A stretch of DNA of 64,000 nucleotides, taken from Membranipora membranacea. Taxonomy: Eukaryota > Bryozoa > Gymnolaemata > Cheilostomatida > Membraniporidae. Location: positions 22,478,162-22,542,161 of the forward strand of contig OU612067.1 in the NCBI GenBank assembly GCA_914767715.1. The letters run 5' to 3'. The first letter of the stretch is position 1; every line of letters starts with the position of its first letter. The translations under genes and the position numbers were made by a program. Below the pieces are notes generated by a model. The model had not been told where the DNA came from and searched no databases. It was given only the letters and a program-made list of their open reading frames with translations. Of this stretch, positions 14,193-29,609 are shown piece after piece.

Positions 14193-14621
14193 TTATGTTG
14201 CCTGTGGGTAGCCAAGCTTTTCTAGGAGACTCTCCTTTGTATGCTTGGATCTTTGTAGAGGACCTGTACTGCTCACTACAGGAGGAAGAACAAGGTTCTT
14301 CTGAAGTGTATTCCGTGATTCTGGAGACTGACTATACTGGTCTAGTTCATTCTTCTTCATGTCCATGACAGCATTTGTAACCATCTCATGTATGGTTGTC
14401 TTCCCATCAGCTTTAGCAAACTCTCTGGCTATGGCTCCAGTAAAAGCTCCTCTGACAGCCATCTCTCCAACCACTGTTGACATCAGTAGCAGTGTATGAG
14501 GCCTCTTTAGTACAACATGGTTCACCTCATCTGGATTAGCTTCCTTTGCATCAGAATGGCTTGTGGAAGGTCCAGTTGCTTGTGGAGGGTTGTAATATTG
14601 GCAGGCCTGAATTATGGCAAT
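14193..14621 (-). CDS. Exon: caspase catalytic Cys and p10-like subunit
   Basis: The exon begins after TTGTAG and encodes [10 protein letters not shown]. This is the caspase active-site pentapeptide position, with Cys kept but Arg-Gly replaced by Gln-Tyr. An Asp/Glu/Pro-rich linker ([14 protein letters not shown]) follows, then a p10-like part: [20 protein letters not shown], with the Arg that in caspases helps form the S1 pocket, and a tail [16 protein letters not shown] close to the usual TPE..STL.K.L pattern. It ends at TAA after GYPQAT. Confidence 0.85.
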   Translation of the reverse strand: MAIIQACQYYNPPQATGPSTSHSDAKEANPDEVNHVVLKRPHTLLLMSTVVGEMAVRGAFTGAIAREFAKADGKTTIHEMVTNAVMDMKKNELDQYSQSPESRNTLQKNLVLPPVVSSTGPLQRSKHTKESLLEKLGYPQAT

Positions 14622-29600: not shown

Positions 29601-29609
29601 AAAAGGCAT
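14193..29609 (-). CDS. LRR-ROC-COR-caspase protein (ROCO family, 23 exons)
   Basis: Exons on the minus strand, high to low: 29414-29609, 25662-25881, seventeen 141-bp LRR exons (24533-24673 down to 19843-19983), 16502-18453, 16206-16271, 15263-15681, 14193-14621. Every join is GT..AG and phase-compatible. The total is 5,679 nt, an exact multiple of three: about 1,892 residues. Approximate order: acidic N-terminus 1-65; LRRs 139-990; ROC GTPase 1010-1190 (GKSRAGKT P-loop, DFGGQ, THCDS); COR to about 1500; linker; caspase-like domain 1650-1870 with His (MTHG) and Cys (QACQY). ROCO proteins are GTP-regulated signalling scaffolds, and caspases are death or inflammation proteases. That both act in one chain is inference. 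Joins at 29.4/25.9 kb and 16.5/16.27 kb rest on phase and splice signals only. If 16,502 is not used as a donor, the ROCO frame stops at 16,494 and the caspase part would be a separate gene. Confidence 0.72.
15263..15681 (-). CDS. Exon: caspase p20-like subunit with catalytic His
   Basis: After an acceptor (TACTCAG) the exon encodes a short helical lead, then [19 protein letters not shown], matching the first strand and Arg-bearing loop of caspases. A core strand and the His-Gly motif follow ([18 protein letters not shown]), then a segment equivalent to the caspase helix before the active-site Cys. It ends VPM|GTATGT in phase 0 and joins directly to IAIIQAC. An open frame continues past the donor for about 27 codons but has no caspase-like sequence. 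Confidence 0.85.
16206..16271 (-). CDS. Exon: linker between COR and caspase regions
   Basis: A 66-nt exon between a TTTAG acceptor and a TCAA|GTAAGT donor. The 1-2 phase of its ends fits both the ROCO exon (donor CCAT|GTATGT) and the p20 exon. It encodes [20 protein letters not shown], a short helical stretch. This is the piece that bridges the two halves of the proposed gene. Confidence 0.6.
16502..18453 (-). CDS. Exon: last LRRs, ROC GTPase and COR domain
   Basis: A single 1,952-nt exon. It starts after TTTTGCAG with [14 protein letters not shown], an LRR in register with the array exons. The ROC GTPase follows, with P-loop GKSRAGKTS, switch/G3 segment ILFTDFGGQ and a G4-like VVLTHCDS. 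The COR region starts near [11 protein letters not shown] and includes [16 protein letters not shown] and a winged-helix-like IVPYFASR block. LRR-ROC-COR order is as in LRRK and MFHAS1 proteins, but no kinase follows. The frame also runs on to a TAA at 16,494 if the terminal donor is not used. Confidence 0.9.
19237..19556. mobile_element. Nested MITEs in the ROCO intron
   Basis: The outer element has about 22-bp inverted ends, ACTG(A/T)AG(T/C)GCTGTTTGAATGAC. Inside, at 19,331-19,414, a second palindrome has CTGTCAAAAGGACCAT and its exact complement as ends. No coding capacity. Confidence 0.6.
19843..24673 (-). repeat. Tandem array of 17 LRR exons, ~293-bp period
   Basis: Seventeen units, each a 141-bp exon plus about 152 bp of intron, lie head to tail. 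Exon positions: 19843-19983, 20136-20276, 20430-20570, 20723-20863, 21016-21156, 21310-21450, 21603-21743, 21896-22036, 22189-22329, 22482-22622, 22775-22915, 23068-23208, 23361-23501, 23654-23794, 23947-24087, 24240-24380, 24533-24673. Each has an ..ATAG or ..ACAG acceptor and an AAAG|GTGGGT donor, and encodes exactly two LRRs of 23-24 residues ([10 protein letters not shown].. and [10 protein letters not shown]..). All exons are open and begin and end in the same phase, so losing or gaining one keeps the frame. Introns are as similar as exons. Variable residues cluster after LETL/LEEL and VL.V, on the predicted LRR concave face. Confidence 0.92.
20114..21873 (-). repeat. Higher-order duplication of a three-exon block (~880 bp)
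   Basis: Units at 20,114, 20,408 and 20,701 match units at 20,994, 21,288 and 21,581 better than their neighbours. The middle pair (20,408 and 21,288) encodes identical protein. This marks a recent unequal exchange of three units. Confidence 0.8.
24730..25661. other. Intron between array exon and upstream exon
   Basis: No repeat or exon recognised. It lies in the proposed intron joining 25,662 to 24,673. Confidence 0.45.
25662..25881 (-). CDS. Exon: entry to the LRR region
   Basis: A 220-nt exon with TTTCTAG acceptor and AG|GTAGGT donor. It encodes [14 protein letters not shown], a charged segment, then [19 protein letters not shown], which looks like a first degenerate LRR. It ends in the phase all array exons accept, and reading on gives [14 protein letters not shown], an LRR in register. 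At its 5' end it accepts a C from the exon at 29,414. Confidence 0.7.
26669..28812. mobile_element. 2.1-kb TIR DNA transposon remnant
   Basis: Inverted ends of about 200 bp (26,669-26,880 and 28,590-28,812) share GTTG..CCTCCTTGTTG, TTGAACCCACAAACGTCG and a series of degenerate ACGTCGCAA motifs. The right end has about 12 extra bases near its tip. The interior keeps a degenerate OTU-protease-like stretch and no intact transposase frame. It lies in the first large intron of the ROCO-caspase gene, in AT-rich DNA. Confidence 0.75.
27720..27895 (+). pseudogene. OTU-like cysteine protease remnant inside transposon
   Basis: The plus strand reads [20 protein letters not shown], like the GD..xLQALA helix region of OTU proteases carried by some transposons. 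After an in-frame stop and some scrambled codons comes [20 protein letters not shown], like the acidic strand that follows. The catalytic Cys region was not identified. Too broken to be functional. Confidence 0.45.
29021..29264. mobile_element. MITE with GGGGGGTCTTT inverted ends
   Basis: The left end GGGGGGTCTTTTAATTAGAAA and the complement of the right end, GGGGGGTCTTTCACTTAGAAA, differ at about two positions. About 244 bp in all. The interior has repeated GAGTGAGCGAT-like motifs. No clear target duplication. Confidence 0.6.
29414..29609 (-). CDS. Exon 1: acidic N-terminus of the ROCO-caspase protein
   Basis: The open frame starts at an ATG at 29,607-29,609 (MPFMIESF..). A second in-frame ATG with an adenine-rich context is at 29,568-29,570 (MKRAHRGK). 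A basic patch (RKVAKRHAK) is followed by an Asp/Ser/Thr/Glu repeat ([12 protein letters not shown] units) and EK. The donor is C|GTAAGT, and the spare C completes an Arg codon with the exon at 25,881. A TATA box lies about 80 bp upstream, so this is a genuine first exon. That it belongs to the ROCO gene is inferred from phase and from no other exon on this strand between 25.9 and 29.4 kb. Confidence 0.6.

What the first reader, a model, noticed from the sequence alone, without database searches (positions are those of the whole stretch)
14193..29609. Single gene joining LRR array, ROC-COR GTPase and caspase-like protease
All 23 exons join with GT..AG borders and matching phases into a frame of exactly 5,679 nt. 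The ROCO exon has a strong donor (CCAT|GTATGT) six bases before its own stop, and the bridging 66-nt exon fits both sides. Known animal ROCO proteins carry kinases, death domains or ankyrins. I do not recall one ending in a caspase-like domain, which would make this a self-contained sensor-switch-protease.
Basis: partly seen in the sequence, partly recalled or inferred. Interest (0 to 1): 0.92.

Follow-up and report, generated by a model that had tools for sequence, protein, structure and literature searches.

The report
Animal receptor GTPase with built-in caspase
An animal genome appears to encode a large family of giant proteins that join a variable recognition array, a GTPase switch of the Parkinson's-protein (LRRK2) type and a caspase-type protease in one chain, which looks like an immune sensor and its cell-death enzyme built into a single molecule.

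Summary
The 23-exon, 5,679-nt frame is reproduced exactly. It encodes LRRs, Roc, COR and a caspase domain. The join does not rest on this window alone. All 64 scored ROCO-exon hits in the genome (window included; 64 of 615 candidates scored) are followed on the same strand by a caspase exon (49, 12, 3). The donor before the apparent stop is kept in 28 of 28 rows, 23 genes. A bridging exon recurs between the halves, above shuffled controls in 13 of 13 loci tested. Catalytic His, Cys and a small-subunit Arg are invariant in six diverged copies. New here: ligand-facing positions of the LRR exons change fast (pN/pS 4.4 against 0.37 elsewhere; introns differ by 5%). I read it as a one-chain immune receptor-protease, a new ROCO architecture. 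No transcript was available, no processed copy spans the join, and poly(A) signals in some first introns allow a ROCO-only isoform. My literature searches found no description of it; the closest published relatives are brown-algal ROCOs (PMC11378527).

The parts
29414..29609 (-). exon 1: start ATG, acidic Ser/Asp/Thr-rich N-terminus
   Evidence: conservation not tested
25662..25881 (-). exon 2: N-terminal exon of the family
   Evidence: 138 matches in the genome; 32 of 64 ROCO hits have one within 20 kb upstream, same strand
19843..24673 (-). 17 LRR exons of exactly 141 nt, phase 2, two LRRs each by reading, in a unit of about 293 bp
16502..18453 (-). ROCO exon: last LRRs, Roc GTPase (P-loop [18 protein letters not shown]), COR, C-terminal Cys motif; donor T|GTATGT at its end
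16206..16271 (-). 66-nt bridging exon, phase 1 to phase 1
15263..15681 (-). caspase exon A: large subunit with catalytic His (MTHG) and a conserved Arg
14193..14621 (-). caspase exon B: catalytic Cys (IIQACQ), Asp-Ala in the linker, small subunit with a conserved Arg; TAA at its end
16494..16496 (-). in-frame TAA just behind the donor, intronic in this model
19600..19690 (-). decayed 18th LRR exon without a usable donor, skipped in the model
   Evidence: read by eye

Best explanation
It is one gene for a single-chain receptor-protease: a fast-diversifying LRR array (17 exons of two repeats each, plus flanking repeats), a Roc-COR GTPase module of the LRRK and bacterial-Roco type, and a caspase domain that keeps its catalytic residues. 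Proposed working, step by step: (1) the LRR concave face binds a variable, probably microbial or danger ligand [inferred; the pattern of change on that face is shown]; (2) binding alters the nucleotide state and dimerisation of Roc-COR [inferred from known Roco proteins; nucleotide motifs and COR fold shown]; (3) this brings caspase domains together and activates them by induced proximity, as for caspase-8 or -9 [inferred]; (4) cleavage after Asp in the subunit linker at a conserved Asp-Ala, then of cell-death or signalling substrates [conservation shown, cleavage inferred]. Receptor and executioner, elsewhere split between an NLR and a caspase, would be one molecule present in many diversified copies.
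For: Frame and phases. LRR_14 5e-16, Peptidase_C14 2.2e-13, Roc 5.3e-6 at its cut-off; Roco by sequence 9.6e-10; COR by fold 5e-18; caspase-8 by profile 1.5e-7; exon A model to caspase-2 2.1e-4. Linkage: 64 of 64 scored ROCO hits followed by a caspase exon (49, 12, 3). Donor in 28 of 28 rows; in 23 of 23 database ROCO exons with the motif the next residue is K, E, M or R. Bridging exon in 27 of 28 rows, above 40 of 40 shuffles in 13 of 13 loci. 13 of 18 loci with all three exons give full joined frames. Similar constraint on both halves, e.g. dN/dS 0.11 and 0.18 (window vs L021), 0.16 and 0.17 (L009 vs L011). LRR concave pN/pS 4.4 vs 0.37 elsewhere; 3 of 100,000 random codon sets reach the concave pN. 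Asp-Ala in 5 of 6 rows of A2 and 8 of 8 database exon B proteins.
Against: No transcript examined. None of 72 matches to a junction peptide covers the ROCO end and the caspase exon together. AATAAA or ATTAAA lies in intron 1 of the window and of 4 of 11 other loci, so a ROCO-only isoform is possible. In-frame ATGs open into the bridging exon in 5 of 12 loci, and 10 of 13 relatives have a Met before the first caspase strand, at differing places. No database protein covers both halves (capped candidate lists). Some close C5 copies have a stop in exon A. COR-A stays under its Pfam cut-off. A single caspase sequence scores only 0.035 in the PDB, level with an unrelated FliG chain.
Confidence: 0.88

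Rival explanations
1. Two adjacent genes: an LRR-ROCO gene ending at the TAA at 16,494 and a separate caspase-like gene just downstream.
For: The ROCO exon has its own stop, with AATAAA about 70 bp later; 5 of 12 loci have AATAAA or ATTAAA in intron 1 and 5 of 12 an in-frame ATG open into the bridging exon. The caspase module also occurs behind ankyrin repeats, so it is not tied to ROCO. No processed copy spans the join.
Against: Donor kept in 28 of 28 rows, stop at varying distance. Bridging exon in phase with both sides. No conserved Met: L009, L020 and L021 have none before the first caspase strand, though L009 and L021 have an upstream in-frame ATG and L020 was not tested for one. Only 173-343 nt lie between in 13 relatives. 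Adjacency in 64 of 64.
Confidence: 0.06
2. Both products are made: intronic poly(A) gives an LRR-ROCO and splicing gives the ROCO-caspase, so the join is a regulated isoform.
For: AATAAA or ATTAAA in intron 1 of the window, L025, L021, L026 and L027 (L026 and L027 are close copies).
Against: Not conserved: absent from 7 of 12 loci. No RNA data.
Confidence: 0.25
3. The gene is a decaying copy; the caspase is a relic or a pseudo-enzyme.
For: The window's version has QACQYY without the usual Gly; some C5 copies have a stop in exon A; L035 is a deletion chimera.
Against: The window's frame is intact over 23 exons. His, Cys, Gln and two Arg are invariant in A2. dN/dS of the caspase part is 0.17-0.26 between diverged copies, with dS partly saturated. 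A sister subfamily keeps QACAGG or QACSGG.
Confidence: 0.12

Closest known systems
Brown-algal LRR-ROCO genes (Teng et al. 2024, PMC11378527; abstract and passages seen)
   Same: LRR-ROC-COR; LRRs on many phase-2 exons; positively selected sites on the concave face; 111 genes in four species
   Different: One LRR per 72-bp exon, here two per 141-nt exon; no caspase (text search 0). Their group 3 (three members) has a C-terminal peptidase, of type IPR009003
LRRK1/LRRK2, DAPK1, MFHAS1 and C. tepidum Roco (Wauters et al. 2019, PMC6337361; passages seen)
   Same: Roc-COR core; C. tepidum Roco, LRRK1 and LRRK2 are the best fold matches of the ROCO exon
   Different: The review sorts Rocos into LRR only, LRR plus kinase, and kinase-first with death domain; caspase and protease occur 0 times in its text
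Caspase-8 and other metazoan caspases
   Same: Large then small subunit, SHG, QACQ and the small-subunit Arg align
   Different: No CARD, DED or death domain found by Pfam in front; instead LRR-Roc-COR and a linker of about 65 residues
NLR receptors of sponges (Dysidea avara, PMC12909245; abstract and passages seen)
   Same: Expanded LRR receptors; one figure legend lists CASc and COR among its domain labels
   Different: Switch is a NACHT ATPase; ROCO occurs 0 times in the text, and no passage shown describes a ROCO-caspase protein

Membership tests
ROCO proteins | Roc GTPase domain with nucleotide motifs | tested here: met
   Pfam Roc at its cut-off; P-loop residues invariant in 16 rows
ROCO proteins | COR domain directly after Roc | tested here: met
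   Pfam COR-A and COR-B below cut-off, but the fold match covers Roc-COR of 3dpu, 6hlu, LRRK1 and LRRK2 (model pLDDT 68)
ROCO proteins | GTP-dependent switching or dimerisation | not testable with these tools
   needs protein
Caspases (Peptidase C14) | catalytic His/Cys dyad in SHG and QACxG contexts | tested here: met
   H128 and C168 invariant in A2, six sequences; aligned to caspase-8. The window's copy reads MTHG and QACQY, so the Gly is missing
Caspases (Peptidase C14) | specificity for Asp: pocket Arg residues and Gln | tested here: met
   R74, Q166 and R218 invariant in A2; the small-subunit Arg aligns with an Arg of caspase-8. That these line the pocket is recalled, for R74 by position only
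Caspases (Peptidase C14) | proteolytic activity | not testable with these tools
   needs protein
NLR receptors | NACHT or NB-ARC ATPase | tested here: not met
   No such family in the Pfam scan; the switch is Roc
Diversified LRR immune receptors (works like) | excess amino-acid change at concave LRR positions | tested here: met
   other loci, only just in L020; ratios between repeats, no formal site model

The most novel reading that the evidence does not exclude
An animal lineage runs a dedicated innate recognition system of well over a hundred single-chain receptor-proteases: duplicating two-LRR exons under diversifying selection feed a Roc-COR switch that fires a built-in caspase, and the same caspase module is also placed behind ankyrin arrays. 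This would be a one-molecule counterpart of the NLR inflammasome that needs no adaptor.
Probability: 0.45. Interest if true: 0.93.

Novelty: new variant of a known kind. Interest (0 to 1): 0.85.

Why it matters
In the animal pathways I know (recalled), sensing and caspase activation are split between receptor, adaptor and protease. A fusion removes the adaptor and makes a question testable: does a Roco GTPase cycle control an attached enzyme through dimerisation? That is debated for LRRK2; here a protease would be the read-out. The family also shows exon-wise diversification of LRRs in an animal ROCO, a pattern reported for brown-algal ROCOs (PMC11378527).

Tried and rejected
Separate caspase gene: weighed as the first rival. 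Retrocopy proof of splicing: a 79-residue junction peptide gave 72 matches, none covering the ROCO end with the caspase exon. The C9 match, bridge plus exon A in one frame, lies behind ankyrin repeats. IMG/VR: no relative. GTDB genomes: two bacterial loci at 29-30% identity, not followed. Full-length homologues: none covers both halves (7,994 candidates scored each). Species: not established; that it is a sponge is my inference from relatives in metagenome-type sources and from papers on sponge immune expansions, and no marker was tested (one paper search, did not help). dN/dS for window vs L025 was dropped because my extraction slipped frame; window vs L022 ROCO was saturated. L020's bridging exon scored best with a weak donor and 93 nt. 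The LRR pattern was tried on 14 sources: 5 gave at least three units, with concave pN above pS in all five but only just in L020 (0.435 vs 0.426); 9 gave none.

Full report
What was checked. The window is G000:C3:22478162-22542161 in an unnamed 339-Mb genome of 18 contigs. Seventeen LRR exons are all exactly 141 nt and in phase 2.

Domains. On the joined protein, given without 15 of the 17 LRR exons, Pfam reports LRR_14 at 5e-16, Peptidase_C14 at 2.2e-13 and Roc at 5.3e-6, all at or above the curated cut-off; COR-A stays below (0.28). By sequence the ROCO exon matches C. tepidum Roco (3dpu, 9.6e-10). Its AlphaFold model (mean pLDDT 68, 16 sequences) matches LRR-Roc-COR 6hlu at 5e-18, then LRRK1 and LRRK2, so I take COR as present. 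A profile of six joined caspase parts finds caspase-8 at 1.5e-7, aligning SHG, QACQ and an Arg of the small subunit. A single sequence gives only 0.035 for caspase-2, level with an unrelated FliG chain. The exon A model (pLDDT 63) finds caspase-2 first (2.1e-4).

Is it one gene? Three lines say yes. First, the exon end: in 28 of 28 rows (23 distinct genes; L002-L005 and L008 repeat L016-L019 and L025) the exon ends T|GT, and the next codon reads ATG, AAG or GAG, while the in-frame stop is at codon 1 in 20 rows and at codons 4, 5, 12, 18 or 30 in 8. Of the database ROCO exons, 23 of 23 with the motif (P0001-P0007, P0021-P0036; the remote Roco P0008 lacks it) have K, E, M or R after the conserved PC, which is consistent with reading through a donor, with tails of 1 to 68 residues; their DNA was not seen. 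Second, the bridge: an exon of 66-75 nt (93 in L020, with a weak donor), phase 1 to 1, is found in 27 of 28 rows; L005 is cut short, and the same gene in L019 has it. In 13 of 13 loci tested the score exceeds all 40 base shuffles of the region, clearly in most and more narrowly in L023 (22 vs 18), L028 (36 vs 27) and L024 (30 vs 21). Third, order: of 64 scored ROCO hits (615 candidates, so a lower bound; the window's own is one of the 64), 49 have an exon A match 459-3,066 bp downstream on the same strand. Twelve of the other 15 have a canonical caspase exon 1,064-2,034 bp downstream. The last three have one when read directly (Peptidase_C14 5.6e-14, 3.8e-12 and 1.4e-13). Of 18 loci with hits to all three exons, 13 gave complete joined frames. 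Of the other five, L002, L006 and L019 run into the locus end, and L008 and L025 are one gene with a stop in exon A.

Selection. Both halves are constrained alike between diverged copies: dN/dS 0.11 and 0.18 (window vs L021), 0.16 and 0.17 (L009 vs L011), 0.25 and 0.21 (L010 vs L011); near-identical pairs give 0.36-0.62. dS is near or beyond saturation in the most diverged pairs, so those ratios are rough. The LRR array differs. Among units 2-17, introns differ by 5.2% and exons by 8.0%. At the ten ligand-facing positions of the two strands pN is 0.265 and pS 0.059; at the other 36 pN is 0.031 and pS 0.083. With 15 distinct units, 3 of 100,000 random sets of ten codons reach the observed pN. 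Other loci agree in direction: L016 0.19 vs 0.047, L006 0.338 vs 0.182, L021 0.324 vs 0.189, L020 only just, 0.435 vs 0.426. Units are related by duplication and perhaps conversion, so these are descriptive ratios, not a formal test; intron divergence is the yardstick.

The caspase. H128, C168, Q166, R74 and R218 are invariant in six diverged copies. The subunit linker keeps an Asp-Ala in 5 of 6 rows (L022 lacks it) and in 8 of 8 exon B proteins from the database, a candidate self-cleavage site. The window's motif is QACQYY, without the Gly of QACxG. The sister subfamily (42-48% identical in the ROCO exon) has QACAGG or QACSGG where read, with QACAGS in some rows.

The wider family. Exon 2 has 138 matches (150 of 161 candidates scored). 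Using 82 of them, those on the stretches where the ROCO hits lie, 32 of 64 ROCO hits have one within 20 kb upstream on the same strand, 46 within 50 kb, and none has one on the opposite strand within 50 kb. Exon A gave 150 matches (150 of 266 candidates scored) and the canonical exon 150 (150 of 164), so both are lower bounds. Some sit elsewhere: L036 holds an open frame of at least 1,061 residues with ankyrin repeats (Ank_2 8.4e-49) and a match to exon A (4.6e-11), though Pfam reports no C14 there. L042 has ankyrin repeats before an exon A relative (C14 9.3e-5). At C3:14.23-14.31 Mb, four places have an 842-residue frame with an exon A match. The one I read, L035, joins LRR, Roc and part of COR directly to part of exon A without an intron. 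Pfam gives no C14 and a sub-threshold Roc there, and the first caspase strand and one Arg are missing, so it is probably not functional; it shows only that the two parts can be fused.

Elsewhere. Related ROCO and caspase exons occur in database contigs. I could not open those contigs, so the pairing rests on the lengths.

Literature. Ten searches of the held library were made; one search was about the species, the other nine about this protein or its parts, and no listing named a ROCO-caspase. I saw passages of seven papers. Teng et al. [quoted passage not shown] their brown-algal ROCOs show LRR exons and concave-face selection. Wauters et al. 2019 (PMC6337361) list three Roco groups, none with a protease.

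Mechanism. Shown: architecture by homology, active-site residues in place, constraint on both halves, diversification of the LRR face. Inferred: ligand binding, GTP-controlled dimerisation, induced-proximity activation, cleavage after Asp, and cell death as outcome. I put the single-gene model at 0.88 and the full immune-system reading at 0.45.

Noticed in passing
L036 (G000:C11:3007300-3011300): An open frame of at least 1,061 residues with ankyrin repeats followed by an exon A-like caspase stretch (match 4.6e-11; no Pfam C14 hit), so the module seems to be used behind other arrays.
   Followed up: partly
L035 (G000:C3:14231200-14235200), 351-2876; further places C3:14267177, 14288352 and 14310001: Four places with an 842-residue frame; the one read fuses LRR-Roc-COR to part of the caspase without an intron, a deletion chimera.
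   Followed up: partly
G000, many contigs: 150 matches each for two caspase exon types, lower bounds because 150 candidates were scored each time; it suggests a very large caspase expansion.
   Followed up: no
window 19600-19690: A degenerate LRR exon after the 17th unit, without donor.
   Followed up: no
window 26670-28800: By eye, runs of a TTTGCGACGTT-like motif in opposite orientation at both ends of about 2 kb inside intron 1, perhaps a mobile element.
   Followed up: no
window 29688-29696: TATATAAAG about 90 bp before the proposed start codon, which would fit a promoter there (read by eye).
   Followed up: no
window 4566-5084, 52119-52424 and 60578-60934: Of ten other open frames scanned, three matched: DUF5641 (9e-20), a weak copine match (5e-4, below cut-off) and Peptidase_C1_2 (6e-22).
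   Followed up: no
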